DNA from: Desulfomonile tiedjei
Lineage (GTDB): Bacteria; Desulfobacterota; Desulfomonilia; Desulfomonilales; Desulfomonilaceae
Direction: 5' to 3'
DNA length: 43,521 nt
Assembly: GCA_016218715.1 (NCBI GenBank)
Contig: JACRDG010000100.1
Span: 1-43,521 of the forward strand
Positions 6,097-37,980 of this stretch are shown here, one piece after another. The first letter of the stretch is position 1; each line of letters starts with the position of its first letter. Below the pieces are notes generated by a model. It did not search any database. It was not told the origin of the DNA and worked only from the letters and a program-made list of their open reading frames with translations. Made by a program: the position numbers and the translations under genes.

Positions 6097-6210
6097 CGGG
6101 TCTCTCCTAACGCCGGAATCGACGATCAGTTTCGGGCCCGCACCGCGACCGGTGCGAGCCATGCGGTTCAAATTGGTCTGTCCGTGGTGTGATCTGAGAA
6201 AGACGGAACG

Positions 6211-7101: not shown

Positions 7102-7142
7102 AATCTCTTCTCCTTTTCGGGTTATTCCTCCATCCCTTAAGA

Positions 7143-7161
7143 CGCCCTCTGCCCGAGGGCG
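7143..7161 (-). promoter_or_regulatory. Short perfect hairpin in the rpsB leader
   Basis: A perfect 7 bp inverted repeat (CGCCCTC at 7143-7149 and GAGGGCG at 7155-7161) with a five-base loop lies between the predicted rpsB promoter and its start codon, about 40 nt upstream of the TTG. There is no following T-run, so it is not a plain terminator. S2 represses its own operon through leader RNA in some bacteria; a similar role here is only a guess. Confidence 0.35.
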
Positions 7162-7195
7162 ACCCGATTTCGTGGGATGTGCGAGTTAACCACAA

Positions 7196-7224
7196 ATTAT
7201 TGAACGATCCCGGATCAAATGCAA
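7196..7224 (-). promoter_or_regulatory. Sigma-70 promoter of the rpsB-tsf-pyrH-frr-uppS-cdsA-dxr operon
   Basis: Read on the minus strand, TTGCAT (7224-7219) and AATAAT (7201-7196) are separated by exactly 17 bases. This lies in an A/T-rich patch and would start transcription near 7189, about 90 nt before the rpsB start codon. No better pair was seen in this interval. Confidence 0.65.
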
Positions 7225-7519
7225 GCCAAAAAGAAAACCAACCGAAACTTCGCGGTGATAGGCCCCAGAACAACGTTCATGGCACCGCGCAAAGCACTGG
7301 GCAAGGGGGGGCAGGCAGCCGCCTCCGTCAGTACAAGAAACAAGTATAACGCCAATGAAGCCCTGACGTGACTCCTCAGTGCCGCAGAGGAGAGGAGGCG
7401 CGCACCTTGGCCGATACCGGGAACTTGAGTGCCCGTCCGTGTGGCATCCTCAATCGCAAACTGGTATAGTTCCCATCGAAGAATCGACTCTCGGGCCACA
7501 GGCACGTTCAGGAGATAGC
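7225..7519. other. Divergent intergenic region between rpsB and the acyl-CoA synthetase
   Basis: No gene is convincing in these 295 bases. The region separates the left-facing ribosomal operon from the right-facing synthetase gene. The only sites I can support are the rpsB promoter just inside its left border and the AGGAGA ribosome site at 7510-7515. A promoter for the synthetase is expected but none matches consensus well. Confidence 0.5.
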
Positions 7520-23140: not shown

Positions 23141-26100
23141 ATGATTACCTTCTCGGGGTACCAGGCTCTCCGCAGGATCTATGAAAGCCCGAGTTCGATC
23201 ATCTTTCGAGCTCGCAGGGACGAAGACGGCCTTCCCGTCATCCTGAAACTGCTCAAAGAAGCCTATCCGAGCCCTGGCGAAATCATCAGGTACAAGCAGG
23301 AATATCAGATCACGTGTTCCCTGGCGGACGTGCCGGGGGTCATCGGGGTGTACGATCTGGAAAAGCACCGGAACACGCTATTCATGGTTCTGGAAGACTT
23401 CGGCGCGGAATCTCTCAAGATCCTTGCGGATCTGAATGCATTTGGACTGAGGCAGACCCTGGAGGTCGCCATAGAAATTGCCGGGATTCTGGGAGACGTT
23501 CACGCCGCCAACGTCATACACAAGGACCTGAACCCCTCTAACGTCGTTTTCAATCCGTCCACCGGGCAGATCAAACTGATCGATTTTGGGATTTCCGTGG
23601 TTTTGACCAGCGAAGATCCGACGGTAAAGAGCCCGGACGCTTTGGAAGCCACCCTGGCTTATATTGCTCCGGAGCAAACCGGCAGGATGAACAGGTCGGT
23701 GGACTATCGGAGCGATTACTATTCCTTCGGCGTGACGCTGTACGAACTACTGACCGGAAAGCTCCCCTTCGAGGCGACCGACGCGATGGAGCTGGTCCAT
23801 TGCCACATCGCCAAGCAGCCGATCGCACCCGACAAGATCAGTCCGAATGTGCCGAAGGCAGTCTCGAACGTGATCATGAAGCTCCTGTCCAAGAACGCCG
23901 AAGACCGATATCAGAGTGCGTCGGGAATAAGGGCCGATCTGGAAACGTGCCTGAAAAGCCTTGAATCGACCGGGCGAATCGAACCATTCGACGTGGGACG
24001 GCGTGATATTCCCGAGAGATTTGAGATTCCGCAGAAGCTGTACGGCCGGTCGGCTGAAACCGAAACCCTGATGCAGGCGTTTGAGAGAGCGCGCGCGGGC
24101 CGCAAGGAACTGATCCTCGTGTCGGGAGTTCCCGGCATCGGCAAGACTTCCCTCGTCAGGGAAATATACAAGCCCGTAACCAGTCATAACGGCTATTTCA
24201 TCTCCGGAAAATTCGATCAGTATCAGCGAAACGTTCCGTACTTGGCTGTGGTCGAAGCTTTCCGTGACCTGGTGCGCCAACTCCTGACGGAACGTCGGAG
24301 CGAGCTGGCTGCCTGGAAAGGCAGCCTCTTGGATGGACTGGGGCCTAACGGTCGAGTAATCACGGATGTGATTCCTGAAATAGAGTTGATCATAGGACCT
24401 CAGCCGCCGGTCCCGGACCTCGGGCCGGTCGAGGCGCGCAATCGATTCAATGTTGTCTTCCAGGATTTTCTCCGCGTGTTTTGCCGGGCCGAACGTCCTC
24501 TTGTGGTGTTCTTGGACGATCTGCAATGGGCGGACACGCCCTCGCTGACCTTGTTGGAACTCATGATGACGGACTGGCGGACCCGATCCCTCTTTGTCAT
24601 CGCGGCGTACCGTGACAACGAAGTCGGCCCCGGGCATCCCCTGATGATGACCCTCCACTCGATGCGCGACCGCCAGGTCATCATGAACCAAATTGTTCTC
24701 GTACCCTTGGGGATAGAGCAGATTAGCGAACTGGCCTGCGACACGCTTCGTCGGGATGGAGAATCAGCACGGCCGCTGGCCGAACTCGTTTATCAAAAGA
24801 CAGCGGGAAATCCGTTCTTCGTCAAGGAATTCCTGAAATCACTCGCTACAGATGGGTTGGTGGAGTTCGATCACAAGGCAGGCCAGTGGACGTGGGACCT
24901 CAAGCGTATCCAGGAACAGAACATTACCGATAATGTGGTCCACCTGATGGGACGGAGGATTCTCCAACTTCCCCAGGAGACTCAGGAGGTCTGCAAGCTG
25001 GCCGCGTGCTTGGGCAGTCAATTTGCGTTGGATGGCTTAGCCGTCGTCCGTCAGCAAACGGAAAAGGAAGCTTTGTCCGCTCTGTGGGCAGGCGTCCAAT
25101 CGGGTGTGATCCTGCCCATCGGCGATGCGTACAAGTCGATCCAATTGGATGTTCCCGAGTCGATTCCTGCGTCGAAGATCGAATTCAAATTCTCTCACGA
25201 TCGTATTCAACAAGCGGCCTATTCCCTTATTCAGGAAGGGGAACGACCCGCAGTTCACCTGCTGGTGGGCCAGTTGTTGCTCAGACATACTCCTCCGGTT
25301 CAACGAGAGGACAAGATATTCGACATCGTCAATCAGTTGAACGTCGGTATTCCATTAATTGAGGGCCAGGAGGCTCGCTACGAATTGGCGGAGTTGAATC
25401 TCCTGGCAGGATCTAAGGCCAAAGCCTGTGCCGCGCATGAACCCGCGTTCAATTATCTGAGCAAAGGCATTAGCCTGATCGGAGAAGGCGGTTGGGATCG
25501 GCGCTATGAGCTGGCGCTGAAGCTCCACGTGCAGGCCGCCGAGGTGGCCTGCCTGATCGGGGATTACGAATCTCTGGACGAGTTAGCCCAGATCGTGCTT
25601 CAGCGAGCAACAACCCTTATGGACCGGGTGCATGTGTTTGAAATCGAGATTCAGGCCGAAGCCGCGCAGAACAGACCGAAGGAGGCGGTCAATATCGCCC
25701 TGGATGTCTTGCGAATGCTTGGCGTGGACCTGCCGCGGAACCCCAACAAGCTGCAGGTGCTCCTCGGCCTGGCCCGACTGAAGCTCGCGCTATTGGGAAA
25801 GCGAATCGAAGACTTGAACGACTTGCCTGAAATGACCGACCCGAGCAAACGCGCAGCCTTGAAGATTTGCTCGCGGGTGAGCAACGCTGCCTATTTTGCA
25901 GCACCTGACCTTGCTGCGCTGCTCATCTTCAAGCGGGTCGAGCTGTCCGTTCGTTACGGAAACTCTCCTGACTCGGCGATTGCGTATGCAGCATACGGAC
26001 TCCTGTTGTGCGGAGCACTGGGGGACATCGAGTCGGGGTACCGATTTGGGCAGGTCGCACTGAGACTGCTGGAACGGTTCGGAACCCCGGAAATCGCTGG

Positions 26101-28435
26101 GAGAGTGCTCTTTTGTGTATACAGCCTGATCGTCCACTGGAAGGAGCACCTGCGCAATACGCTGGAGCCTCTGCGTCAGGCCTACCAGAAGGCACTCGAG
26201 ACCGGAGACCTCGAATTTGCCTCCATTTCTGCAGTGCTGCGTTGCCACTATGCGATGTTGGTCGGCTCCGAACTGTCCGGGCTTTCCCGTGAAATTCTGT
26301 CGTACAGCGAAGCCATGCGTCAAATCAAACGCGAGCCTGAACGTCACCTGAACGAGATGATGCGACAGGTTGTCCTGAACTTGATGGGCGAGGCTGAGAA
26401 TCCATGCCGTCTCATCGGCGAGGCATACGACGAAGAAGAAATGGTGAAGACCCATCTCGAAGCGAGCAACAGGACACACCTATGCCATCTCTACATTTAT
26501 AAAATGATGTTGTGTCTGCTGTTCGACGAGCCCCTTGAAGCCCTTGCCCACGGTCAGACCGCGTGGCAGTACATGGATGCTGCCAGGAGCCTTCCGTCTC
26601 TCCCGGGAGTGTACTATTACCTTTCGTTGACAAGGTTGGCATTACTACATTCCGGTGATGACGGATCAAAGAGGCGCACCCTTCGCGAGGTGGCGGCAGC
26701 TCAGAAGAAGATGCGGAAATGGGCGCATCATGCCCCGATGAACTGGCTTCCGAGGTTTTTGTTCGTTGAGGCCGAACGCGCCCGAGTGACGGACCAGGAG
26801 GCTCGCGCCATTGCCCTCTATGACCGGGCCATCGAAGTGGCCAAAGAGCACGAGTACCTCATCGAAGAGTCGATGGCCAATGAAGCGGCTGCGAAATTTT
26901 ATCTGGCAAAGGGTAGGATCCGGGTCGCTCGGTCCTACATGGAAGAGGCCCGTTACTGTTACGTGCGCTGGGGAGCCAAGGGCAAAGTGCGCCACCTGGA
27001 TGAAAAGTACCGTGAACTGCTCAGCGCAACGTACGAGAATGAGGAGCTGCCCAGCGAGGATGCCCGCCACGCGACTACGGCAACCACGGGCGAGCGCCAC
27101 CCCGATCTGGACCTGACCGCAGTCGTGAACGCTTCTCAGGCCATCTCCGGCGAAATAGTCCTGGAAAGATTGATCGACAAGCTCATGACCCTCGTGATCA
27201 AGACCGCCGGCGCCCGGAGAGGATGCCTCATTCTGGAATCCGGGGGCCAGTGGCTTCTTGAGGCCGAGGGATCCGTCGAGCAGACCGATATCACGGCCCT
27301 GCAAGGGATCCCGGTGGAAGGATGCGGCAAACTGCCGGCATCTATCATCAACTACGTCGCCCGCACCCAGGAGAGTCTCGTTCTCAACGACGCCTCGCGG
27401 CAAGGGCAGTATTCTTTCGACCCGTACGTGGTGGAGAGCCGGTGCAAATCGATTCTCTGTGCTCCGTTGATACGTCAGAGCAGGCTGATGGGCATTCTCT
27501 ACCTCGAAAACAACCTCGCGGAAGGGGCGTTTACCCCCGCTCGCCTGGAAATACTCGGATTGCTCTGTTCTCAGGCGGCAATCTCGTTGGAGAACGCACG
27601 CCTGTATGAACGCGAGGAAGACTATTCACGGACCCTGGAATCCAAAGTAGCCGAGCGAACCCAGGCGCTGGAACAGGCGATGCAAGATTTACGCGTCGCC
27701 AGGGATGCAGCGGAGACGGCAAGCCGGGCCAAGACCGAATTCCTGACCAATATGAGCCACGAACTTCGAACACCGCTGAACTCCATCATCGGTTTTTCCG
27801 AGCTTCTCGAAGACCAGACTTTTGGACAGTTGAACCCGAGACAGAAGGTGTTCATCGGCAATGTCTGGGCGAGCGGGCGCCATCTGCTCGAGTTGATAAA
27901 CGACCTGCTGGACCTTGCCAAGGTGGAGTCCGGCAAGATGGAACTCCAGCTTTCCACCGTGTGCATCGGCGACCTGCTCAAGGGAAGCCTGGCCATGATG
28001 AGAGAGACGGCCCTGAAGCATCAACTGAATACCCAGCTGATGATTGTAGCGGGCGTAGAGGGCTTGAGTCTTGTTGCCGACGGGGTGAAGCTCAAGCAGA
28101 TCGTATTCAACCTGTTGTCCAATGCGGTGAAGTTCACGCCGGATGGCGGCTCGATCGTCGTCGCGGCCCGACAGGAGGCTGATAAGCTCGTGATAAGCGT
28201 GTCGGATACAGGGATTGGGATCAAGGCGGAAGATCAGGAGCGGATCTTCCGAGAATTCGAGCAGTTGGACGGTTCGAACGGGCCAAAACAAGAAGGAACG
28301 GGCCTGGGGCTTGCGTTGACCCGACGACTGGTCGAACTGCATGGGGGGCAGGTATGGATAGAAAGTGACGGGCCAGGCAAAGGAAGCAGGTTTAGCTTCA
28401 GCATACCCCTTATAATTGATAACCAACTGGAATGA
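23141..28435 (+). CDS. Trifunctional Ser/Thr kinase - AAA ATPase - GAF - histidine kinase (HstK-like)
   Basis: A 1764-residue cytosolic signalling protein with no membrane segment. Residues 1-270 are a protein kinase domain: ATP lysine in VILK (K36), catalytic loop HKDLNPSN (D129, N134), DFG (D148-G150) and APE (176-178) are all intact. From about 300 an AAA_16-type ATPase begins after YGR, with Walker A GVPGIGKTS (329-337) and a VVFLDDLQWAD Walker B. Residues about 640-1310 are helical and repeat-like, probably TPR-type. A GAF domain follows (about 1335-1485), then a coiled coil, the histidine box MSHELRTPLNSIIGFSEL (H1540), the N box LLSNAVKFTPDGG and the G1 box SDTGIGIK (near 1687). This is the architecture of cyanobacterial HstK proteins. 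It lacks a receiver domain. The ATG at 23141 has no clear ribosome site. The sigma-54 response regulator gene that follows is the likely partner. Confidence 0.93.
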   Translation: MITFSGYQALRRIYESPSSIIFRARRDEDGLPVILKLLKEAYPSPGEIIRYKQEYQITCSLADVPGVIGVYDLEKHRNTLFMVLEDFGAESLKILADLNAFGLRQTLEVAIEIAGILGDVHAANVIHKDLNPSNVVFNPSTGQIKLIDFGISVVLTSEDPTVKSPDALEATLAYIAPEQTGRMNRSVDYRSDYYSFGVTLYELLTGKLPFEATDAMELVHCHIAKQPIAPDKISPNVPKAVSNVIMKLLSKNAEDRYQSASGIRADLETCLKSLESTGRIEPFDVGRRDIPERFEIPQKLYGRSAETETLMQAFERARAGRKELILVSGVPGIGKTSLVREIYKPVTSHNGYFISGKFDQYQRNVPYLAVVEAFRDLVRQLLTERRSELAAWKGSLLDGLGPNGRVITDVIPEIELIIGPQPPVPDLGPVEARNRFNVVFQDFLRVFCRAERPLVVFLDDLQWADTPSLTLLELMMTDWRTRSLFVIAAYRDNEVGPGHPLMMTLHSMRDRQVIMNQIVLVPLGIEQISELACDTLRRDGESARPLAELVYQKTAGNPFFVKEFLKSLATDGLVEFDHKAGQWTWDLKRIQEQNITDNVVHLMGRRILQLPQETQEVCKLAACLGSQFALDGLAVVRQQTEKEALSALWAGVQSGVILPIGDAYKSIQLDVPESIPASKIEFKFSHDRIQQAAYSLIQEGERPAVHLLVGQLLLRHTPPVQREDKIFDIVNQLNVGIPLIEGQEARYELAELNLLAGSKAKACAAHEPAFNYLSKGISLIGEGGWDRRYELALKLHVQAAEVACLIGDYESLDELAQIVLQRATTLMDRVHVFEIEIQAEAAQNRPKEAVNIALDVLRMLGVDLPRNPNKLQVLLGLARLKLALLGKRIEDLNDLPEMTDPSKRAALKICSRVSNAAYFAAPDLAALLIFKRVELSVRYGNSPDSAIAYAAYGLLLCGALGDIESGYRFGQVALRLLERFGTPEIAGRVLFCVYSLIVHWKEHLRNTLEPLRQAYQKALETGDLEFASISAVLRCHYAMLVGSELSGLSREILSYSEAMRQIKREPERHLNEMMRQVVLNLMGEAENPCRLIGEAYDEEEMVKTHLEASNRTHLCHLYIYKMMLCLLFDEPLEALAHGQTAWQYMDAARSLPSLPGVYYYLSLTRLALLHSGDDGSKRRTLREVAAAQKKMRKWAHHAPMNWLPRFLFVEAERARVTDQEARAIALYDRAIEVAKEHEYLIEESMANEAAAKFYLAKGRIRVARSYMEEARYCYVRWGAKGKVRHLDEKYRELLSATYENEELPSEDARHATTATTGERHPDLDLTAVVNASQAISGEIVLERLIDKLMTLVIKTAGARRGCLILESGGQWLLEAEGSVEQTDITALQGIPVEGCGKLPASIINYVARTQESLVLNDASRQGQYSFDPYVVESRCKSILCAPLIRQSRLMGILYLENNLAEGAFTPARLEILGLLCSQAAISLENARLYEREEDYSRTLESKVAERTQALEQAMQDLRVARDAAETASRAKTEFLTNMSHELRTPLNSIIGFSELLEDQTFGQLNPRQKVFIGNVWASGRHLLELINDLLDLAKVESGKMELQLSTVCIGDLLKGSLAMMRETALKHQLNTQLMIVAGVEGLSLVADGVKLKQIVFNLLSNAVKFTPDGGSIVVAARQEADKLVISVSDTGIGIKAEDQERIFREFEQLDGSNGPKQEGTGLGLALTRRLVELHGGQVWIESDGPGKGSRFSFSIPLIIDNQLE

Positions 28436-28476: not shown

Positions 28477-28643
28477 AAAATAGTTCAAAGTAGTGTAACA
28501 GCTTCGGCATTCCAGCAACTTCACCCCACTAAACGTCCTGAGAGGCATTGATGTAAAGGGGAGTCGACCAAACGGAGGGTTACGGCACGATGCCGGTCAC
28601 CCTTCCTCATGGATGCGGCTCGCTCCCGAGACGAGGACGATTC

Positions 28644-30431
28644 ATGGAAACGCCAAAACGTATCCTCGTTGTGGATGACGATCGGAACAATCTCGATCTC
28701 CTCGGTTACAGACTGGAGTCATTGGGGTACGAGCCGAAACTCGCTGACAACTGCGCCGAAGCGCTGGCCAAGCTTGAATCGGGGGTGGACCTGGTCCTCC
28801 TCGATGCCGTCATGCCGGATATGGACGGATTTCAGCTCGCGAAGGTAATTCGCGACGACCCCCGTTTCAGCGATATTCCCATCATTATGGTGACCATTCT
28901 CTCGGGGAAGGGAGACCGACTTCGCGCAGTGGAATCGGGAGCCAACGATTTCATTGCCAAACCCATTGACGTGCTTGAGCTGCAGGTTCGGACCGCAGCA
29001 CTCCTCAGGATGAAAGAAGCTCAGGATGCCGTCAAGCGCCACCGAGCCGAGTTGGAGACAGAGGTGGAGCGGCGCACCGCAGCACTGAGCGAAAGCGAGG
29101 CCCGCTTTCGCACTGTCTTCGAGGCGGCTCAGGACTACATGTTCGTAAAGGACAATGAGCTCAGGTACACGCATGTCAACGCGGCCATGACGAAAGCGGT
29201 CAACGCGGAGGAATCATCCATCATCGGGAAGACCGACGAAGACGTGTTCGGCGACGACTATGCACGGCAGGTCACAGACCTGGAGTACCGTGTGCTCAGG
29301 GGACAGGCGATTGAAACAGAACACACCTTGACGTGTGGCGGCCTGGAAACGAACGTGAGTTTCATGAGATTCCCCATGCGAGGAGCGGATGGCCGGATAA
29401 CCGGGATCTGCGGGATCGGCCGAGACATCACCGACCGCAGCCAGAGAGAATCCAAGCCAAGGGCAGAGGCCGAACGCTATCCTTCCCCGGCCATGAGAGA
29501 TACTTTGGAACAGATCTGTCTCGTGGCCAAGACTGACAGCATCGTGCTCTTTCTCGGGGAAAGCGGCAGCGGCAAAGACTACTTGGCCCGTTGCCTCCAT
29601 CAGTATTCCCACCGGGCATCAGGCCCTTTTTTCGCCATAAACTGTGCGGCACTGGCGCCCGAGCTGGTCGAGTCTGAGTTGTTCGGCCATGAACCCGGTG
29701 CGTTCACGGGATCTCAACGGAGAAAGCGCGGACTCCTGGAACTGGCCGAGGGTGGCACTTTGCTGCTGAACGAAATCGGGGAGCTGCCGATTCGACTCCA
29801 GTCCAAGCTGCTCACATTTCTGGATACCCAATCGTTCGTTCGGGTGGGCGGAGAACGGGATATCTCCGTAAATGCCAGAATGGCTGCGGCAACAAATCGG
29901 GAACTCAAGAAAGAGGTTGAGCTGGGAACCTTTCGCGAAGACCTCTTCTACCGTTTGAACGTGTTTTCGATTCGCGTTCCTTCGTTGCGTGAACGGGTCG
30001 AAGACCTGCCCCTGCTTGTCTATGAGCTCGTGGCAGCGCTCACGAAGAAGATGGGGCTGTCCAACGTGCCGACAGTCGAGATGACCGCAATCGATGCGCT
30101 GACGGGCTACACGTGGCCTGGGAATGTCCGAGAGCTGAGTAACTTGCTGGAAAGGGCGTTAATCATCTCCGACAAGAAACGGATTACGGTGCGCGACCTG
30201 GGAATGCCGGCAAAGATGGAGTTCAAGAGGACTCATGAAAACGACATCTCATTCGTAGTGAGTCTATCCGAAGCTGGTTCGCTCCACGACCTACTTCTGG
30301 AAACCAAGCGCCGGTGCGTGACCGAAGGACTCAAGGTCTCTCGCGGCAGTATCAAAGGCGCAGCTCATCTTCTGGGAATTTCCCGCGACTCTTTTGTGCA
30401 CCACATGAAATCTCTCGGAATCCGTAAGTGA
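28644..30431 (+). CDS. Sigma-54-dependent response regulator (REC-PAS-AAA-HTH)
   Basis: A 595-residue NtrC-family regulator with an added PAS domain. Receiver (about 5-120): acidic pair VDDD, phospho-acceptor LLDAVMPDMDGF (D54) and IAKPID. A coiled segment leads to PAS (about 150-265, FEAAQDYMFVKDNELRYTHVN). The AAA domain (about 285-515) has Walker A GESGSGKD (305-312), the sigma-54 contact loop GAFTGS (352-357; usually GAFTGA), Walker B LLLNEIGE (N376 where Asp is usual), FREDLFYRLNVF with arginine finger, and WPGNVREL. A Fis-like helix-turn-helix ends the protein (GSIKGAAHLLGISRDSFVHH). The ATG at 28644 (METPKRILVVDDD) has GAGGA upstream; the frame opens at 28590 but the extra residues do not belong to a receiver. 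It should switch on sigma-54 promoters when phosphorylated, probably by the upstream kinase. Confidence 0.93.
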   Translation: METPKRILVVDDDRNNLDLLGYRLESLGYEPKLADNCAEALAKLESGVDLVLLDAVMPDMDGFQLAKVIRDDPRFSDIPIIMVTILSGKGDRLRAVESGANDFIAKPIDVLELQVRTAALLRMKEAQDAVKRHRAELETEVERRTAALSESEARFRTVFEAAQDYMFVKDNELRYTHVNAAMTKAVNAEESSIIGKTDEDVFGDDYARQVTDLEYRVLRGQAIETEHTLTCGGLETNVSFMRFPMRGADGRITGICGIGRDITDRSQRESKPRAEAERYPSPAMRDTLEQICLVAKTDSIVLFLGESGSGKDYLARCLHQYSHRASGPFFAINCAALAPELVESELFGHEPGAFTGSQRRKRGLLELAEGGTLLLNEIGELPIRLQSKLLTFLDTQSFVRVGGERDISVNARMAAATNRELKKEVELGTFREDLFYRLNVFSIRVPSLRERVEDLPLLVYELVAALTKKMGLSNVPTVEMTAIDALTGYTWPGNVRELSNLLERALIISDKKRITVRDLGMPAKMEFKRTHENDISFVVSLSEAGSLHDLLLETKRRCVTEGLKVSRGSIKGAAHLLGISRDSFVHHMKSLGIRK

Positions 30432-30912
30432 TAAACACCTATTCGATCCTGGCGATCGGTGATATTCCCTGACGCATACCTCATGGCATTTCAGTCGGTT
30501 AAGTGCTGATGCCCCGCCGCTAAGTGTTTTCCACCTGTTGGTCCGGTCCGGCAACGGCGCCGCGGAGACATGCCGTTACCCCCTGCCACGATCGTTCATC
30601 CTCGCAAATCCGCCCCTCAAGCCATTCCGGTTCGGCGCAGACGCGCTTGGCACAGAAGATGCTTATACCAATGCGCGATCAAAGAAGTAGTCCTGCTGAT
30701 GGGCGCTCCTGAGAGGTCTCCGGAGCGTAGTCAGGCTGTGCCGTCCGCAGCGGAGGAGACCTTCCAGGAAAAGCCCTTGGTAAGCTCCTCTAGTATTACC
30801 TGGTTAAAAGCGCATTAATCTCATAAGGACAGCAGCAGCTTCCGGCACGTGCGACTAACGCTCGATAAAGCTCGTGGCAGCTGCTGAACCTGAGCCATGA
30901 GAGGGGGAAGCC
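30432..30912. other. Intergenic region after the response regulator
   Basis: No gene is supported in these 481 bases; the short open frames have no ribosome site or recognisable product. One inverted repeat is visible, AGGTCTCC (30714-30721) with GGAGACCT (30755-30762), enclosing 33 bases. Its role is unknown; no T-run follows. Confidence 0.4.
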
Positions 30913-31110
30913 ATGAGAAACAGAAACCCCGTGTGCCATTATCCGCCGTGTAGCTATGCTGCCGGCGCCGCCTATGTCGCAGACCGCAGCGAGATGCTCG
31001 ACCTGATAGGTTTCTGCGAACCCTCGGACGCGAAGCGCGGTGCCGGTACGGAGGGACACGATCTGGAACACGACTTTGAGGACGAGCTGCTCCTGGTTGC
31101 CACAGGTTAG
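30913..31110 (+). CDS. Small protein of unknown function (65 residues)
   Basis: I do not recognise this frame. It encodes 65 residues with two early cysteines (CHYPPC), no transmembrane segment and an acidic stretch near the end (HDLEHDFEDE). Support for translation is an AGGGGG ribosome site six bases before the ATG and the position 39 bp upstream of a well-supported small membrane-protein gene on the same strand. It may equally be chance. Confidence 0.35.
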   Translation: MRNRNPVCHYPPCSYAAGAAYVADRSEMLDLIGFCEPSDAKRGAGTEGHDLEHDFEDELLLVATG

Positions 31111-31149
31111 CGGTTCCAAACCACCGGACTTCACAGGAGGATAAGGAGA

Positions 31150-31476
31150 ATGAAAACGAGAGACATGCATGCGAGAGTGGTTTCCGAAGCCGCCGGATCC
31201 GCAGCGATGATCTGCTGGTTGCTGATCGTCGGACCTGTCGGCGCACTGATAATGCTGGTCGTGGCCTACGCCATGGTGCTTGGAAATACCGTGTGGATTG
31301 CAGCGTGCGTATTGCTGTTGCTGTCTCCGCTCGCGCTGACTCTTGCGTGGGGAATTCTGGCCTGGCCGGCACTCCTGAAAAGAGACGAAGCTGAAGAACA
31401 TAAGGTTCTCACTCCGTTTGCTCGGCCTTGGCCGCAGCGCGGGCACTCTTTGGCGGGCCAGAGGTCTCTCAAGTGA
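31150..31476 (+). CDS. Small membrane protein with two transmembrane helices, unknown function
   Basis: A 108-residue protein with two strongly hydrophobic segments (about residues 16-43, AAMICWLLIVGPVGALIMLV, and 47-72), a charged loop RDEAEEHK and a basic C-terminal tail. No family is recognised. AGGAGG and a second AAGGAG lie directly upstream of the ATG, so translation is likely. A perfect 13 bp hairpin follows 46 bases after the stop codon, marking the end of the unit. The gene lies just before the large PKD protein, but that gene has its own leader and no functional link is shown. Confidence 0.65.
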   Translation: MKTRDMHARVVSEAAGSAAMICWLLIVGPVGALIMLVVAYAMVLGNTVWIAACVLLLLSPLALTLAWGILAWPALLKRDEAEEHKVLTPFARPWPQRGHSLAGQRSLK

Positions 31477-31522
31477 GGGGCAGAGCCGCGCCATGCCGGT
31501 GTGCATGTAGGCGAGTGATTTT

Positions 31523-31554
31523 GGGGAGAACCTTTTCTCAGAAAGGTTCTCCCC
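31523..31554 (+). terminator. Probable terminator hairpin after the small membrane protein
   Basis: A perfect 13 bp stem, GGGGAGAACCTTT (31523-31535) with AAAGGTTCTCCCC (31542-31554), and a six-base loop. The downstream bases are AGCTTATTT rather than a solid T-run; on the other strand a short A-rich CAAAATC follows, so direction is not certain. Confidence 0.6.
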
Positions 31555-31912
31555 AGCTTATTTCATCTGAAAAGAATCGATATGAATTTCGCACTTGTCA
31601 GAGACGTCGTCACAGTAATAGAATCGCGCTTAAGAAACAGCCCTCAGCATGGTGAACATCAGGAAACAGGGGATGTGCGGTTGCGCGCGTATTTCGGTTT
31701 CTGGGCTCTGGGCTCTTCAGCGAGATATGTCGAGAGCGTCATCGTTGCAACTGCTTCATTGAGGCTTCGACTTATCCCCTCCGGCTGCCCCCCGGGTCTT
31801 TCAACAGGCGCACCTACCTCCCGGCATCCAGGACTATTTGCGCGACCAGCCGGCGGGGCGGCTCGTGAAGCAGCCACAAGCGTCCCGACGCAACCGAACC
31901 AAGGAGGGGAAC
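31555..31912. other. Leader region of the PKD protein gene
   Basis: About 360 bases without a supported gene. A TTGTCA (31595-31600) followed after 15 bases by TAATAG (31616-31621) is a possible but poorly spaced promoter. The large frame downstream is open from 31838 but the residues before 31913 look non-coding. Nothing else was seen. Confidence 0.35.
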
Positions 31913-34900
31913 ATGTCGAGCGATCAGATTTCTCGCACCATCATTGGCGAGATCGTTGTCATTCCCACCGAGGCCTTGCCGGGCCAGAGCGTCCTGGTAG
32001 AGGTTCTGTCCCCCGAGGGTCGGTCGTACGACAACGCCGAGATTCCGCACGTGTCCATAAACGGTGTGTTGGGGTCGCGACAGTATCTGCAGTTTCCACG
32101 CCCCGGGATCCGGACGGTTTACGTCGTCGCGAAACGCGACGACAAGGTTGAAAGAGAGGCAGTTCGCGTCGTAGTCAAGGCGATGCCCGATCTGGAGATG
32201 GACGAACAACCAGGCGAGGCCGAGCTGAAGGCAGTGCGCGGCCGTGTCGCCGGCCTGCCGCTGCTCCATGCGGCCACGTCCAACGACGAGGCGTATCGTG
32301 TAGCGTTTTCACTGGGCGGATGGTCCCCTTTCAACCACGGCCTCTCGAGGCGCCGCCCTGTTATCAAGAGAGCTGTCGCGCAAGGCTCCGCGGTCGATCC
32401 AGAATCGACCGGCATGCAGCCGGAGGTCTCAGCGGCATCTGACGTGGAAGGCAGCGAACAGCCCCGGGGTGCAAACGAATCGTTGGCACTGCATCCAGTC
32501 ATGGTGTGGACGGGCAAGACAAAGCACATTCCGCTCGACGCCAAGCCGCTTCGAAATTCGGAGGACCAACTGATCGGCCACGCGACGGTGACAGGACCGG
32601 TCCCGGCGACCCGGGTGCCAGCCCTCCGCAGCGCCGAGGAATCGACCGATACGCCGCTCTATCACTGGGACTTTGGTGACGGGACCACCATGACGACGTG
32701 CAACGCCCGCGTCGAGCACGACTATGAGCAGGCGCTGGACCCGAGCCGCGAACATCAGCAATTCGACGTGAGGCTAAGCCTGCGAAAGCCGGATGGGAGC
32801 ACCGATGAGGCAGTCCGTACCCTTACGGTCTTCAACGCGTACGCCATGTGCAAGAAACGCGGAATAATCGTGCCCCGAACAGAGCAGCAATTTTACGCAC
32901 AGGTCAACGGGTTTGGGTTTTCAGCAAAACTGCTTGTCACTAACGTGGAGAACATTCCATTGACGCTGACCCATACGCGCCTCCGCGTTGTTGCAGCGGA
33001 GCCCGATCGTACGAGTCCGCTCGGTCCGGTCGAAGTGGTCGATCCCCCCATTGTAATTCCCGCGGCCGGGAAAGCCGAGATTCCAATTTCCATGCCGTTC
33101 AGTCGGGTCCCCAAGAAGTCGGCAGGTTTCACGGTCCATTTCTTTGGTAATGCAGAGACCGGCGAAGCCATCCGAGTCGAGGGAACGTTCGACACTCGGG
33201 CCAAGGATCGGGCTTCCGATGCAGTGACCATCGGCGACGTCTCCATCGGCCATGTGCCCGGGTTCGAGCACGTCCTTGAAACGGCCGGGGCTGCCGGCGA
33301 ATCACGGACCTGTAGTGCCGAACGCCCAAGCCCGGCTGACCCCATTGCGGCCAACCTTCGTTGCCGAAACTTCACGTGCGAGGAAGTCAATCGGATCGTC
33401 CTCGGAGCCGATGCCGAGCGTCTGCGCTGCTCTGTGAGTGCATTGACTGAACCGGCGGATGCGTGTGCCGCATCTCCGGCCCCGCCTGTCGAAGGGGCCG
33501 AGTGTGACCCGGACAACCTTCCCGAGTTGACGCAGGATCAGCTCGATGAAGGATGGGTCTGCCAGGCAGTGCCGGAGGTGCGAACCGTCACTACCCCCGC
33601 GCGTTTCCTGAACGCGCTGAAAGGAGACATCATTCTATCTCCGGGAGGTGAAAGCTTTGTGGGAGGACTGCTGCGTCAAGTGGACCCCCCTCAGAAGTAC
33701 GGTCATTGCGGTATCATGACCCGCAACTACGATCAAGTTACCCACTCCACGGCAAGTGAAGAACGACTGTTCGCTTTTCTCAATGGTCCAGTGCAGGGCT
33801 TGCCTGTATTGATAGACGGCTTTGAGCCCAATGCCTTGAAATACATGTGGCCTGGCGTCGTCACGCAGACGATAGACGATTCAATCTTTGGCGGGTCGAT
33901 GACCGACCCGGACACGGGGACGCCATACGACATCTGCGCCTTCTCCGCGGGGCCTCAAGGCGCGGATTTCAACGGGCAATGGACGATCGTCCCACCGCTC
34001 GTCGTCAAACCGGATCCGCTCCTCGAGACACCCGAAATACGAGCCAAGCTGCATGAAGTGGCGGACGAGGCTTGCTCCCTCGCTGGCCAGAGCCACTACC
34101 GGTTGTACTGTTACACCGATCCGACCATAGCCCAGAATCCACAGCACGTGGCTCCGCCCGAGGCTGGCTGGGCTGCCGGAACATTTCCCAGTGCCTGCTC
34201 CTGCTTCCTCTGGATGACCCTGAAGCGTCAAGGACTTCAGCTTGAAGGCCCCGATCTCGAAGGGGGCGATGTGGCCGGCGGAGCTGAAGTGGGACCGACA
34301 ACTCCCGACGGGCTCTATCATTACACTGCTGCGGAGAGGCTGGCAGGCGCATTATGGCTCAAGGAACAAGTAACACGCAGGGTAGAGCGCCACCTTGAGG
34401 AAAAGCTCGGGATTCCCGCTCAGCTCTTGAATTCGTTCGCCAAGATATCGGAACACGTCAGCAATCAGATGCTCAATACTCTCGCGAGCGATTGGGCGGA
34501 CGATGCGGCCAAATACTCGCAGGCTTGGCACGGTCCCGAAAACGCCAAGGACATCGACACCGTAAGTCCCGAAAACGCCCTGTTTTGGGATTCCCCGGCA
34601 ACTGCCGGCCTGTATGGCTGGGCGGTTCCTCTTTCATATCGCCAGAGCCGGCAAGAAGAAGTCACCGTTCACCGCTGGAAGAAAGTTCAGGCCAAGGGCA
34701 ACCTGTCGGGGTACGTGCGGTTTCAAGGGAACCCGGTCGCAAAGGTCCTCGTCCAGGTCTATGATGGAAAGAGCGATTTCACCGATGTTAATGGGCACTA
34801 CCGGATTGCCGGAATACCGTTCGGCCCGTACGTAGTAAAAGCGTTCAAGGAAGCGCTGAACGGCATTTCCGCCGGCGCGAGCTGTGCATTTGCCCTCGAC

Positions 34901-35353
34901 CAGCAAGACATGACACTTGACATCACACTTGCGTCGCCGGAGGCAGACTTTCGCAGGGTACAAATGTTCGCTCACATCACGACCACGGACGATGAATGGT
35001 GGCGTCCCGACGAGCATGCTTCAAAAGATTACTTCGAGGAAGTGCAGGTAGGCCAGTTGAATCCCCAGAAAGCCGTCTACTTTGAGCAGCGGATGGGAGG
35101 CGAAATCAGAATCGAATTACGGCTCCAAATCGACTGGCAGGCGGGTGGAGCCATACAGGTCACGCCAATTGCCAAAATGTTCCAGGGTCCGACCGATAGC
35201 ACCAATGACTTGGACGACGAAGAGAATGCTCTGCCGTTTATCGTGCCCACGGACGAACAAGCGTCAGGGCAGATCCATCTCTACAACAACGAATTCTGGA
35301 ACGGGGACACATCGGTGATCACCTTTACGGCAGTCAATCTCGTCCAGCCCTGA
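31913..35353 (+). CDS. Large multidomain protein: PKD domain, probable permuted papain-like hydrolase, carboxypeptidase-regulatory-like domain
   Basis: This 1146-residue protein is not a named family to me. An N-terminal beta-rich region (1-240) is followed by a PKD domain centred on WDFGDG (252-257). After a further beta domain comes a Cys-rich linker (about 465-540, at least six Cys). Then GDIILSPGG (from 571) and YGHCGIM (H598) come before SACSCFLWMTLKRQG (C762, C764). This is His first, Cys later, each in an NlpC/P60-like context (CSxF), the order of circularly permuted papain-like enzymes such as YiiX. Residues about 929-985 (LSGYVRFQGNPVAKVLVQVY, TDVNGHYRIAGIPFGPYVV) resemble a carboxypeptidase-regulatory-like domain; the last 150 residues are unassigned. 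No signal peptide is visible although such domains are often exported. The ATG at 31913 has AAGGAGGGG upstream. Catalysis is inferred, not shown. Confidence 0.8.
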   Translation: MSSDQISRTIIGEIVVIPTEALPGQSVLVEVLSPEGRSYDNAEIPHVSINGVLGSRQYLQFPRPGIRTVYVVAKRDDKVEREAVRVVVKAMPDLEMDEQPGEAELKAVRGRVAGLPLLHAATSNDEAYRVAFSLGGWSPFNHGLSRRRPVIKRAVAQGSAVDPESTGMQPEVSAASDVEGSEQPRGANESLALHPVMVWTGKTKHIPLDAKPLRNSEDQLIGHATVTGPVPATRVPALRSAEESTDTPLYHWDFGDGTTMTTCNARVEHDYEQALDPSREHQQFDVRLSLRKPDGSTDEAVRTLTVFNAYAMCKKRGIIVPRTEQQFYAQVNGFGFSAKLLVTNVENIPLTLTHTRLRVVAAEPDRTSPLGPVEVVDPPIVIPAAGKAEIPISMPFSRVPKKSAGFTVHFFGNAETGEAIRVEGTFDTRAKDRASDAVTIGDVSIGHVPGFEHVLETAGAAGESRTCSAERPSPADPIAANLRCRNFTCEEVNRIVLGADAERLRCSVSALTEPADACAASPAPPVEGAECDPDNLPELTQDQLDEGWVCQAVPEVRTVTTPARFLNALKGDIILSPGGESFVGGLLRQVDPPQKYGHCGIMTRNYDQVTHSTASEERLFAFLNGPVQGLPVLIDGFEPNALKYMWPGVVTQTIDDSIFGGSMTDPDTGTPYDICAFSAGPQGADFNGQWTIVPPLVVKPDPLLETPEIRAKLHEVADEACSLAGQSHYRLYCYTDPTIAQNPQHVAPPEAGWAAGTFPSACSCFLWMTLKRQGLQLEGPDLEGGDVAGGAEVGPTTPDGLYHYTAAERLAGALWLKEQVTRRVERHLEEKLGIPAQLLNSFAKISEHVSNQMLNTLASDWADDAAKYSQAWHGPENAKDIDTVSPENALFWDSPATAGLYGWAVPLSYRQSRQEEVTVHRWKKVQAKGNLSGYVRFQGNPVAKVLVQVYDGKSDFTDVNGHYRIAGIPFGPYVVKAFKEALNGISAGASCAFALDQQDMTLDITLASPEADFRRVQMFAHITTTDDEWWRPDEHASKDYFEEVQVGQLNPQKAVYFEQRMGGEIRIELRLQIDWQAGGAIQVTPIAKMFQGPTDSTNDLDDEENALPFIVPTDEQASGQIHLYNNEFWNGDTSVITFTAVNLVQP

Positions 35354-35373
35354 AGGTGCCGCACAGGAGGAGT

Positions 35374-35403
35374 TCGGGGGGATGCTTTGCCGCGTCCCCC
35401 CGA
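35374..35403 (+). terminator. Probable terminator hairpin after the PKD protein gene
   Basis: A perfect 9 bp GC-rich stem, TCGGGGGGA (35374-35382) with TCCCCCCGA (35395-35403), and a 12-base loop, 20 bp past the stop codon. It lies between convergent genes, so it could act in either direction. No T-run follows. Confidence 0.5.
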
Positions 35404-35553
35404 GGCCCGAGCCCGGCCCGAGCACCGGCCGAATGGGCATAATTCCGAGAACCCTCTCCCTTGTGTACGAACGCGCGCGATCATGGGGAGTATGGCCACG
35501 CACCTCTCCCGGCCCGTGGCGGTCAACTCGCCCCGTCTCCACCGCGGGCGCCA

Positions 35554-37980
35554 TCACGAATTTGTGGTGACGTCGCCGTACATCTTCCAGGTTTCGGCGA
35601 ATGCCGCATCAAAAGAGCGACTCTCCGCATACTGTCGAGCCGCCTGACCCATTCTCTTCAACGCCGCAGGTGCTGCCACCAAGTCTTTCAAAGCTGTCAA
35701 GAAGCCGGCTTCATCGTTTCCTTGCACGACCAACCCTGTCTCTCCGGCAACCATGTTCTCCTGCGGCCCGCCTTGGTCGGTGACGACCACCGGCAAACCG
35801 GAAGCCTGCGCCTCGAGGACTACATTGCCGAACGTGTCCGTGGTGCTCGGAAAAACGAAGAGATCGCAGGAGGCATAGATGGGGGCCAAAGAATCTGCTT
35901 CCAGATAGCCAGTGAAGAGGCACGGCGTCCCTTCGAGGGCTTCTTGCATTACTTGCCGGTACGGTCCGTCTCCGACGATCACGAGAGACACGTCCTTGAC
36001 CGTTTCAACGAGGCGCCTGAAGACGTTCACCAGCAGAGGCAGATTCTTTTCCTTCGAAACCCTCCCGACGTACACCAGTTTGGTTCGATAGTCCCGTCCA
36101 AAGGAGGCGTCCACTATTCCATTTCTCCTGGCAGGATGAAACCGCTGGGTGTCCACGCCGCGCGGGAAAATGCGGATCCGGCCCGGACTAAGTCCGCGGC
36201 GGTTCAGTTCGTGCGCAAAGGCTTTCGACGGCACGAAAACACAGTCCATCTGATCATAAAACCAGAGCACATATTTCCACACCAGCTCTTCCATATCGGC
36301 ATCCTCGGTGAGGAGGCGAGCATACTCGGGCAAGGCCGTATGGTACGTCCCGATGACGGGGAGCTTCAGTATGCGGGCCGCCGCCAGGGCAGCCAGCCCG
36401 AGAGGTCCCGGCGTGGCCGCATGGATGTGCGTAAAGTCGTGTCGATAGCAGTAATCCACCACCTCCAGAAAGGGCGGATAGAATAGCTTCTGTTCAGGGT
36501 AAACCGGGACATCATAGACGCCGATGGGCTCAAAATGATGCATGCCGTTGCCATTGACACTCCCATTCACCTGGCAGCTCAGTACCGTGTAACTGACTCC
36601 CATTCTCTTCGAGGCGGCAATCTGCTTCTTCAGGGATTCCGCGACCCCGTTCACTTCGTGGAGCGTATCGGTGAAGTGGGCAACGCGGATACCGTCGTGG
36701 GGGTTTCTCGATGTTGATTGGTCGACCTGAAAGCTTCGGGCCACGGAGCGGCTAAATCTCCTCTCTTCCGAGAAGGTGGAGAATGCCACAAAATAAGGGG
36801 CCAGGACGAAATACAGAGCCCCAGCAGAGCCCAGGGAGTCGAAGATGTTGAAAAGGTTCGCGCCCGCGAGGCTATCCACGACATGATGCGCGAATCGCCC
36901 CATCACCGAGTTCGACAGATCATTCACAAAGTGAAACCACCTCTGGTCGAGGTCATGCTTATCGCCCCCGTTGCGGGCGAGATCCGACAACTGGGGGTCC
37001 AGGCCGATCATCTTGTGGGTTTCATCCCGGAGCAGACTCAGTATGTTGCTGTCCTGCCCCTGGTTGCTTCGAAACCCGTTCCTACCGACCCAGAGAAGGT
37101 CAAACAAACTCCAGTTTCGCGTGTCGCGCGTGCGATTGGTTTGAAGGAACCCGTCAAGGAGCTTGAACGCTATCTCGGTGTGTGCGAACCGGTTCAGATT
37201 GAGCTTGTTCTCATAGAATCGATACGCGACGCTGTAGATGGTTCTGGCGAGTGTTTGCGGTGTGGAAGGCTCTCCCACGACACGGCATCGTCTCTCGACA
37301 ACCCCTCGAAAGAAGCCGACCCGATCGTGCTCCCCCTCCACTTCCGTGTAGCGCCGGGCAATGGTGAGGCCTCCGTGATCGTCCGACCCACCCGAGAGGT
37401 TTTTTTCCCACGGAGACTTGAAAGCAGGAACAATGCCGTGTTTCTCGCTCAACCGATCGATCGTGGCTGGAGTGAGGTGTCTGAGGATGTTCTGAAGCAG
37501 CTGATTCTGCAACTCGCTGCGCGCTCCATTCAATTCGAAACACTCGAAAAGGAGGAGCGCCGTCTCGAAGCGATCGATCGTGAGCTTGCGATTCACGGAA
37601 TAGAGAGGATGCGCCAAAACGTGGACGATACGCCGCTCGTTCAGATACTTGCACAGGTCAAACACATTCTCGCGGACTTTCTGAATATCTCGATGAATCG
37701 CCTCGTCGATGTCGTACACCAGCACATGGAGCTTGCACTGATCGTGGGGAAAATATGTCGTCACTTCTTCGCTGATAAACACGTCCGGCAGATGAGCAAT
37801 TTCGAGACATCCGTCAATCGTGTTGTGGTCAGTTAAGGTGACCAGCCCCATGCCCTTCTGCCTCGCCGCTCTAAAGACTTCCATTGGCTCCGTGAAGCTT
37901 TCAGGGCAGCTCAACTGCTTGAGAATCCATTCACTGGGCCGTTTCGAGTGTTTGGAATGCACGTGCAGATCGACTTTCAT
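35554..37980 (-). CDS. PHP-domain phosphoesterase fused to a GT4 glycosyltransferase
   Basis: An 808-residue fusion. Residues 1-250 form a PHP domain with the metal-binding set DLHVHS (H6, H8), TLTDHNTIDG (D51, H52), SEE (E71/E72), LHVLVYDI (H85), VLAHPL and SDDHGG, so it is probably an active metal-dependent phosphoesterase. A roughly 170-residue helical linker follows. From about 425 a GT-B glycosyltransferase of family GT4 begins (VAHFTDTLHEVNGVAESL), with the donor-binding LVYVGRVSKEKNL, LVIVGDGPYR and the EX7E-type region TDTFGNVVLEAQASGLPVV. The GT part resembles glycosyl-diacylglycerol and phosphoinositol-type transferases. AGGAGG lies eight bases before the ATG. It is the last gene of a methyltransferase-Psd unit, which suggests action on a membrane lipid. 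The acceptor is unknown. Confidence 0.9.
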   Translation of the reverse strand: MKVDLHVHSKHSKRPSEWILKQLSCPESFTEPMEVFRAARQKGMGLVTLTDHNTIDGCLEIAHLPDVFISEEVTTYFPHDQCKLHVLVYDIDEAIHRDIQKVRENVFDLCKYLNERRIVHVLAHPLYSVNRKLTIDRFETALLLFECFELNGARSELQNQLLQNILRHLTPATIDRLSEKHGIVPAFKSPWEKNLSGGSDDHGGLTIARRYTEVEGEHDRVGFFRGVVERRCRVVGEPSTPQTLARTIYSVAYRFYENKLNLNRFAHTEIAFKLLDGFLQTNRTRDTRNWSLFDLLWVGRNGFRSNQGQDSNILSLLRDETHKMIGLDPQLSDLARNGGDKHDLDQRWFHFVNDLSNSVMGRFAHHVVDSLAGANLFNIFDSLGSAGALYFVLAPYFVAFSTFSEERRFSRSVARSFQVDQSTSRNPHDGIRVAHFTDTLHEVNGVAESLKKQIAASKRMGVSYTVLSCQVNGSVNGNGMHHFEPIGVYDVPVYPEQKLFYPPFLEVVDYCYRHDFTHIHAATPGPLGLAALAAARILKLPVIGTYHTALPEYARLLTEDADMEELVWKYVLWFYDQMDCVFVPSKAFAHELNRRGLSPGRIRIFPRGVDTQRFHPARRNGIVDASFGRDYRTKLVYVGRVSKEKNLPLLVNVFRRLVETVKDVSLVIVGDGPYRQVMQEALEGTPCLFTGYLEADSLAPIYASCDLFVFPSTTDTFGNVVLEAQASGLPVVVTDQGGPQENMVAGETGLVVQGNDEAGFLTALKDLVAAPAALKRMGQAARQYAESRSFDAAFAETWKMYGDVTTNS

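What the first reader, a model, noticed from the sequence alone, without database searches (positions are those of the whole stretch)
31913..35353. PKD + permuted papain-like + carboxypeptidase-regulatory-like protein without a signal peptide
The combination is not one I recognise. H598 (GHCGIM after GDIIL) precedes C762 in a CSxF context, the reverse of normal NlpC/P60 order but right for YiiX/permuted papain-like enzymes. Extracellular-type domains (PKD, carboxypeptidase-regulatory-like) without an export signal suggest an unusual secretion route or an intracellular role. A Cys-rich linker of about 75 residues lies between the PKD and catalytic regions.
Basis: partly seen in the sequence, partly recalled or inferred. 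Interest (0 to 1): 0.62.

Follow-up and report, generated by a model that had tools for sequence, protein, structure and literature searches.

The report
Unannotated permuted papain-like multidomain enzyme
A large bacterial protein with no export signal carries an active-site pattern like that of a little-understood family of enzymes thought to act on fatty-acid bonds, joined to surface-type modules in a combination found only sporadically in the genomes searched.

Summary
In detail: ORF 31913-35353 (+, 1146 aa) has H598, C762, weak PKD and carboxypeptidase-regulatory-like matches and no signal peptide. A colinear relative (53% identical over catalytic and helical parts) and an 800-aa relative occur in two genomes of an actinobacterial class; H598 and C762 are invariant in the three. 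Pfam and NCBIfam give no papain-like match. A profile of the three matches 19 members of PF05708 (peptidase C92, YaeF/YiiX-like permuted NlpC/P60): score 47.7, best of 200 column shuffles 23.0. At relaxed settings it pairs GD571-572, H598, Y729 and C762 with YiiX GD24-25, H49, Y115 and C128; the third triad residue (E64) pairs with C675 here and D in both relatives. The Cys-rich linker is mostly not conserved. Two AlphaFold jobs failed (pLDDT 29, 37), so the H598-C762 distance is untested. Most likely an unannotated branch related to C92, acting as cysteine acyl-hydrolase or transferase; substrate inferred. The missing signal peptide is shared by the relatives, and one solved enzyme of the kind is also called likely cytoplasmic. 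New variant of a known kind.

The parts
31913..35353 (+). gene of the whole protein, 1146 aa, ATG start
   Evidence: colinear relative P0004
31902..31907 (+). AGGAGG, ribosome-binding-site-like, 5 bases before the ATG
   Evidence: read in the sequence
31940..32188 (+). residues 10-92, conserved N-terminal segment (Ig/PKD-like by eye only; no family match)
   Evidence: conserved in P0004; no Pfam match for residues 1-226
32621..32836 (+). residues 237-308, PKD-like domain with WDFGDG
   Evidence: Pfam PKD_4 E 5.7e-5 at 237-274, PKD E 0.022 at 244-297, both below cut-off; conserved in P0004
32837..33202 (+). residues 309-430, further conserved segment of unknown family
33311..33562 (+). residues 467-550, Cys-rich linker; only C531 and C550 recur in P0004
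33590..34327 (+). residues 560-805, permuted NlpC/P60 (C92-like) catalytic region
   Evidence: hhalign against PF05708 members
33623..33628 (+). G571-D572, GD motif (pairs with YiiX G24-D25)
   Evidence: GD in P0004, GH in P0005
33704..33706 (+). H598, proposed catalytic His (pairs with YiiX H49)
33743..33745 (+). H611, invariant in the three relatives; alternative third residue of the triad
33935..33937 (+). C675, pairs with YiiX E64 (third triad residue); D in both relatives
   Evidence: relaxed hhalign settings
34007..34009 (+). K699, pairs with the invariant R90 of the C92 rows
   Evidence: relaxed hhalign settings
34097..34099 (+). Y729, proposed catalytic Tyr (pairs with YiiX Y115)
   Evidence: relaxed hhalign settings
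34196..34198 (+). C762, proposed nucleophile (pairs with YiiX C128)
   Evidence: relaxed hhalign settings
34328..34687 (+). residues 806-925, conserved segment, mainly helical in a poor model, ending FWDSPxxxGLYG
   Evidence: conserved in P0004 and P0005 and in the Streptomyces remnant; no Pfam match above cut-off; model
34703..34852 (+). residues 931-980, carboxypeptidase-regulatory-like domain
   Evidence: Pfam CarboxypepD_reg E 3.8e-5, below cut-off; P0004 E 2e-7, also below
34952..35344 (+). residues 1014-1144, C-terminal module that also occurs alone as a 140-aa protein on a Tolypothrix plasmid
   Evidence: tblastn E 4e-7, 34%

Best explanation
The protein is a multidomain member of an unannotated branch related to peptidase family C92 (YaeF/YiiX-like permuted NlpC/P60). 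C762, at the start of a helix, is the nucleophile. H598 activates it. Y729 supports the scissile carbonyl. A weakened third position (C675, with H611 as a candidate substitute) orients the His. By analogy with other permuted NlpC/P60 enzymes it cleaves or transfers an acyl group on a lipid or lipidated substrate, while the PKD, carboxypeptidase-regulatory-like and C-terminal modules bind or position that substrate. Supported by computation: homology to C92 and the assignment of His and, less firmly, of Tyr and Cys. Inferred: enzymatic activity, acyl or lipid substrate, binding role of the flanking modules. Not known: whether it stays in the cell or leaves by a route without a signal peptide.
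For: H598 and C762 are invariant in the window protein and both intact relatives, and in 22 of 22 rows of a joint MAFFT alignment with 19 C92 sequences. The profile of residues 556-805 with two relatives against 19 C92 members gives score 47.7, Prob 91, E 1.1e-6 for that single pair; 0 of 200 column shuffles reach it (best 23.0) and the reversed profile gives 14.3. The N part alone (556-655) scores 34.3, 0 of 250 shuffles reaching it; the C part alone (656-805) scores 25.0, 1 of 250 shuffles reaching it. The relaxed alignment pairs GD, H, Y, C, S, W and a downstream P with YiiX. Lipid or acyl action of permuted members: YiiX holds what is interpreted as a fatty acid in a hydrophobic pocket (PMC3142127, Results parts 1 and 2 of 3 and the Discussion); Tox-Act1 is a phospholipase (PMC12994826, passages including one of the abstract); LnsA is a permuted-type component of lipoprotein N-acylation (PMC7387801, start of abstract and passages).
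Against: No Pfam or NCBIfam papain-like model reaches the protein, and the Pfam C92 model finds nothing in the window's genome. At hhalign's default setting only 39 columns (GD to just past H598) are aligned; the extension to C762 appears only at relaxed or global settings. Against YiiX or YaeF alone the three-row profile gives Prob 0.4 and 0.7; against the five YiiX-like rows Prob 6.7, against the other 14 Prob 16.5; P0004 alone gives Prob 16.5 and P0005 alone 3.0. MAFFT of the window region with nine phage C92 rows, without the relatives, pairs H598 but not C762, and two further row sets pair H and C but not Y729. The third triad residue is C here rather than E. The GD motif is GH in one relative. 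Both AlphaFold models are poor and Foldseek with the second gave no meaningful match. Nothing near the gene points to lipid metabolism; the only possible link among the 16 window ORFs scanned is an AMP-binding enzyme 23 kb away.
Confidence: 0.6

Rival explanations
1. A peptidoglycan or peptide amidase like canonical NlpC/P60 enzymes, acting on the envelope after leaving the cell by an unknown route, with the PKD and other modules binding the surface.
For: Same superfamily; PKD and carboxypeptidase-regulatory-like modules are usual in exported proteins (established knowledge, not tested here). H611 follows H598 by 13 residues, close to the +12 spacing of the second His in canonical BcYkfC (H291, H303 in PMC3142127).
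Against: The residue order is permuted, and permuted members have a hydrophobic, lipid-type pocket (PMC3142127). No signal peptide seen in three of three intact members. The profile was not compared with canonical NlpC/P60.
Confidence: 0.17
2. A catalytically dead or strongly altered papain-like domain used as a binding or scaffold module.
For: The third triad position is C675 instead of an acidic residue; GD is GH in one relative.
Against: H598, Y729 and C762 are kept over large divergence (57% and 40% identity in the region). PPPDE1 has Phe at the third position, and LRAT mutants suggest that the third residue may not be essential (PMC3142127).
Confidence: 0.15
3. A toxin or effector delivered to other cells by a contractile or other system that needs no signal peptide; this is a delivery claim and is compatible with the main one.
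For: No signal peptide seen in intact members; sporadic distribution and a decayed copy on a Streptomyces plasmid; a permuted NlpC/P60 phospholipase effector is known (PMC12994826).
Against: No injection-system or immunity gene recognised among the 16 window ORFs scanned; the rest of the genome was not searched for such systems. PHROGs and PADLOC give nothing for P0001. Neighbourhoods differ between relatives.
Confidence: 0.12
4. The resemblance to C92 is chance and the region has another fold.
For: No curated model detects it; the models are unusable; the significance rests on profile comparison with one family, chosen because of the hypothesis.
Against: 0 of 200 shuffles reach the score; the two halves match separately and in the right order (0 of 250 and 1 of 250 shuffles reach them).
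Confidence: 0.05

Closest known systems
Peptidase family C92, PF05708 (E. coli YiiX, YaeF), and B. cereus BcPPNE; permuted NlpC/P60
   Same: Order GD - His - Tyr - Cys-Ser, Trp five residues after the Cys as in YiiX, downstream P; profile match well above shuffles
   Different: Not detected by the Pfam model; third residue C or D instead of E; R90 replaced by K; about 60 more residues than YiiX between the His and the E64 position (several other C92 rows also carry inserts there); part of a 1146-aa protein with PKD-like, carboxypeptidase-regulatory-like and new C-terminal modules
Tox-Act1 and related permuted NlpC/P60 effectors (PMC12994826, passages)
   Same: Permuted His-Cys core
   Different: No injection cluster or immunity gene recognised near the window gene; not compared at sequence level
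LnsA of Staphylococcus aureus (PMC7387801, passages)
   Same: Distant permuted NlpC/P60 relation reported by profile search in that paper
   Different: LnsA works with a partner protein in lipoprotein N-acylation; no such partner recognised here; not compared at sequence level

Membership tests
Peptidase C92 / YaeF-YiiX-like permuted NlpC/P60 | Match above the curated cut-off of PF05708 | tested here: not met
   No PF05708 match for P0001 or P0002, none at E 0.01 in the genome
Peptidase C92 / YaeF-YiiX-like permuted NlpC/P60 | Invariant His and Cys in permuted order, His before Cys | tested here: met
   H598 and C762 invariant in 22 of 22 rows and paired with H49 and C128 (relaxed settings); one alignment without the relatives failed to pair C762
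Peptidase C92 / YaeF-YiiX-like permuted NlpC/P60 | Catalytic Tyr before the Cys | tested here: met
   Y729 paired with Y115 at relaxed settings; invariant in the three relatives; two MAFFT row sets did not pair it
Peptidase C92 / YaeF-YiiX-like permuted NlpC/P60 | Acidic Glu as third residue (E64) | tested here: not met
   C675 in the window protein, D in both relatives
NlpC/P60 superfamily (cluster II of PMC10318531) | GD motif on strand 1 | tested here: met
   G571-D572; GH in one relative. That GD is characteristic: PMC10318531, passage
NlpC/P60 superfamily | Papain-like fold with His and Cys in contact | tested here: inconclusive
   AlphaFold pLDDT 29 and 37; Foldseek no meaningful match
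Permuted NlpC/P60 enzymes | Hydrophobic S1 pocket, acyl or lipid substrate | not testable with these tools
   needs a structure or an assay
PKD domain | Match above Pfam cut-off | tested here: not met
   PKD_4 23.5 bits against cut-off 27; WDFGDG motif present
Carboxypeptidase-regulatory-like domain | Match above Pfam cut-off | tested here: not met
   24.4 bits against cut-off 32.3; relative P0004 31.7 bits

The most novel reading that the evidence does not exclude
A separate, so far unnamed family of permuted NlpC/P60 enzymes, with an altered triad and built-in PKD-type and other modules, that works without a signal peptide (inside the cell or injected) on acylated substrates and spreads sporadically between phyla by horizontal transfer.
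Probability: 0.3. Interest if true: 0.55.

Novelty: new variant of a known kind. Interest (0 to 1): 0.4.

Why it matters
Functions of bacterial YaeF/YiiX-like permuted enzymes are poorly understood (stated in PMC7387801, passage). A branch that curated models miss, with a substituted third residue and fixed large flanking modules, gives a test of which residues are needed and shows that the permuted core is also used in large modular proteins without a signal peptide.

Tried and rejected
In 395 same-phylum genomes the 5 matching genomes other than the own one had only short weak matches (two PKD, two carboxypeptidase-regulatory, one frame with stops); rejected. In 394 genomes of the actinobacterial class the third matching genome, G627, has a 53-residue match (E 6.8e-4) whose place I judged unrelated after reading the ORFs around it; rejected by judgement. 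Searches with the three-row profile gave 0 of 297 in the phylum of an Acidobacteriota genome, 0 of 297 in the phylum of G106 and 0 of 219 Streptomyces, and only the already known genome among 35 and among 3 order members; the tool warns that the three empty answers hold no positive control. Plasmid hits dropped as relatives: an S8 peptidase of Streptomyces cadmiisoli (E 8e-3) and a Cupriavidus fragment. Phages: no match for P0001 and P0005, one at E 9 for P0002, one at E 0.6 for the C-terminal module. Viral contigs: no relative for P0002, A4 or the C-terminal profile A15, nor for YiiX alone. PDB by sequence: P0002 gave 2 matches at E 0.5, profiles A4 and A15 none. Two AlphaFold jobs failed; Foldseek on the second gave 8 matches, all with E of 6 or more. 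PHROGs and PADLOC gave nothing for P0001, P0004 and P0005. The Rfam scan of 30400-35700 gave nothing. C92 rows: of 59 matches and 30 loci I used 17 loci; L054 and L057-L068 were left out as shorter or weaker matches, most of which end before the Cys. Considered and rejected: that the missing signal peptide by itself shows a new secretion route; that the Cys-rich linker is a functional hallmark. I did not find the combination in print in my searches, which cover only the held open-access papers; the 2003 paper that I recall as defining the superfamily is not held. The phylum of the window's genome was not identified.
Full report
What was checked. The ORF at 31913-35353 on the + strand encodes 1146 residues. 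H598 lies in GHCGIM, 26 residues after D572 of GDIIL, and C762 in CSCFLW. Pfam matches are weak and below the curated cut-offs: PKD_4 (237-274, E 5.7e-5), PKD (E 0.022) and CarboxypepD_reg (931-980, E 3.8e-5); NCBIfam gives none for the whole protein. AGGAGG stands 5 bases before the ATG. Before M1 the frame is open for 50 codons without a hydrophobic stretch by eye, and the largest 19-residue hydropathy in the protein is 1.45, not that of a clear membrane helix.

Relatives. A search of 99 related genomes found only the own one, and in 395 genomes of the phylum only 5 others, with short weak local matches. In 394 genomes of the class of Nonomuraea two hold true relatives: G467 (E 5.3e-98, 53% identity over query residues 4-374 of 375) and G444; a third match was rejected. 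The G467 gene (L029 6503-9934, P0004, 1143 aa) is colinear with the window protein over its whole length, 38% identical overall; the G444 gene (L030 7076-9478, P0005, 800 aa) lacks roughly the first 500 residues. A decayed copy lies on a Streptomyces sp. NBC_00158 plasmid, in several frames; I could not recognise the His and Cys segments in it by eye. The C-terminal module (1014-1144) occurs alone as a 140-residue protein on a Tolypothrix sp. PCC 7910 plasmid (34%, E 4e-7) and aligns with that of P0004. Further profile searches found no new relative: 0 of 297, 0 of 297 and 0 of 219 genomes, and only the known ones among 35 and 3. The family is rare and sporadic in what was searched.

What is conserved. 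Across the three intact proteins H598, H611, Y729, C762, S763 and W767 are invariant. Of the seven Cys of the 467-550 linker only C531 and C550 recur in P0004, which has 8 Cys in all against 16. Residues 1-92, the PKD and a further segment of about 309-430 are conserved between the window protein and P0004, with 32% identity over the N-terminal part. P0005, unlike the other two, has a more hydrophobic stretch in its helical part (19-residue hydropathy 1.84 at residue 443).

The papain-like assignment. PF05708 (C92) was sought in 185 genomes of the class of Thiomicrorhabdus; 49 have a match. Of the 30 loci returned, 17 stretches, plus E. coli YiiX and YaeF, were aligned (19 rows; D25, H49, E64, R90, Y115 and C128 of YiiX invariant); the other 13 loci, shorter or weaker matches, were left out. 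The three-row profile of the catalytic and helical parts matched this alignment with Prob 81; cut to residues 556-805 it gave Prob 91, score 47.7, E 1.1e-6 for the one pair. The best of 200 column shuffles scored 23.0 and the reversed profile 14.3. Residues 556-655 alone scored 34.3 (0 of 250 shuffles reach it), residues 656-805 alone 25.0 (1 of 250 reaches it). The window sequence alone gave Prob 42, P0004 alone 16.5, P0005 alone 3.0; against subsets of the C92 rows the profile gave Prob 6.7 and 16.5, and against YiiX or YaeF alone 0.4 and 0.7. The signal thus depends on pooling rows. By default only 39 columns around GD and H598 are aligned; at relaxed settings the alignment runs on and pairs G571-G24, D572-D25, H598-H49, C675-E64, K699-R90, Y729-Y115, C762-C128, W767-W133 and P780-P181. 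A joint MAFFT alignment of 22 sequences puts H598 and C762 in its only two invariant columns. Without the two relatives, MAFFT with nine phage C92 rows pairs H598 but not C762; with them and other row sets it pairs H and C but not Y729.

YiiX's four catalytic residues are H49, E64, Y115 and C128 (PMC3142127, Results part 2). The dyad is matched, the Tyr is matched at relaxed settings, and the third polar residue is not kept (C here, D in both relatives). H611, 13 residues after H598, is an alternative third residue. The same paper says that PPPDE1 has Phe there and that LRAT mutants suggest that this residue might not be essential.

Structure. AlphaFold on three rows gave pLDDT 29, on seven rows pLDDT 37. 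Both show strands at GDIIL and HCGIM with a helix between, and a helix beginning just after C762 or five residues after it, in the order expected, but the models are not usable and Foldseek found nothing. The H598-C762 distance remains untested.

How it most likely works. From the family, C762 attacks an acyl carbonyl, H598 activates it and Y729 supports the carbonyl. Permuted members are tied to lipids: a fatty acid interpreted in YiiX and a hydrophobic pocket in three structures (PMC3142127), phospholipase activity of Tox-Act1 (PMC12994826, passages), and lipoprotein N-acylation with LnsA (PMC7387801, passages). An acyl or lipid substrate is thus the best guess, not a result. [quoted passage not shown] the modules here may serve a like purpose.

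The missing signal peptide. None is seen in the three intact members. BcPPNE is called likely cytoplasmic, so the catalytic part gives no reason to expect export; YiiX and YaeF do begin with a hydrophobic stretch (read by eye). The PKD and carboxypeptidase-regulatory-like parts are what makes the case unusual. Whether the protein stays inside or leaves by a route without a signal peptide is open.

Neighbourhood. Sixteen window ORFs were scanned with Pfam, the gene itself included. Next to the gene are a sigma-54 response regulator, a very large Ser/Thr kinase/histidine kinase hybrid and a glycosyltransferase with a weak PHP match; farther off are a permease, an efflux pair, an AMP-binding enzyme, a methyltransferase and a lactate-racemase-like gene, and several ORFs without a match. 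The relatives have other neighbours. No shared neighbour was recognised.

Verdict. It is an unannotated, divergent branch related to C92: a new variant of a known kind.

Noticed in passing
window 23141-28435 +: 1764-aa protein with Ser/Thr kinase, AAA_16 ATPase, GAF, HisKA and HATPase domains in one chain, followed by a sigma-54 response regulator with PAS at 28590-30431.
   Followed up: no
window 35554-37980 -: 808-aa protein with a glycosyltransferase family 4 C-terminal half and a weak PHP match (E 0.082) at its N-terminus.
   Followed up: no
window 31521-31556 +: 16-pair hairpin with a 4-base loop, terminator-like, in the 1.5-kb gap before the gene (the scan found 7 terminator-like sites against 5.3 expected).
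   Followed up: no
L030 9833-17248 -: Beside the 800-aa relative: a four-repeat hemopexin protein and two proteins of 1187 and 359 aa without a Pfam, PHROGs or PADLOC match at the limits used.
   Followed up: partly
P0005 (L030 7076-9478 -) about residue 443; L024 about 6360-6450: The helical part of the 800-aa relative, and by eye of the Streptomyces remnant, holds a hydrophobic stretch that the window protein lacks; perhaps a membrane contact.
   Followed up: no
L024 about 5990-7230: Decayed copy of the family on a Streptomyces sp. NBC_00158 plasmid, with a DNA/RNA non-specific endonuclease gene about 2 kb away.
   Followed up: partly
L036 about 3001-3120: Cupriavidus sp. KK10 plasmid holds a 38-residue stretch 60% identical to the very end of P0005, inside an otherwise unrelated-looking frame, perhaps a gene remnant.
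   Followed up: partly
L070-L082: Relatives of YiiX-like (C92) proteins are encoded on 13 environmental viral contigs, four of them only by short weak matches.
   Followed up: no
L017 3341-3763 +: The C-terminal module as a stand-alone 140-aa protein on a small Tolypothrix plasmid; weak match to phrog_9451 of unknown function.
   Followed up: partly
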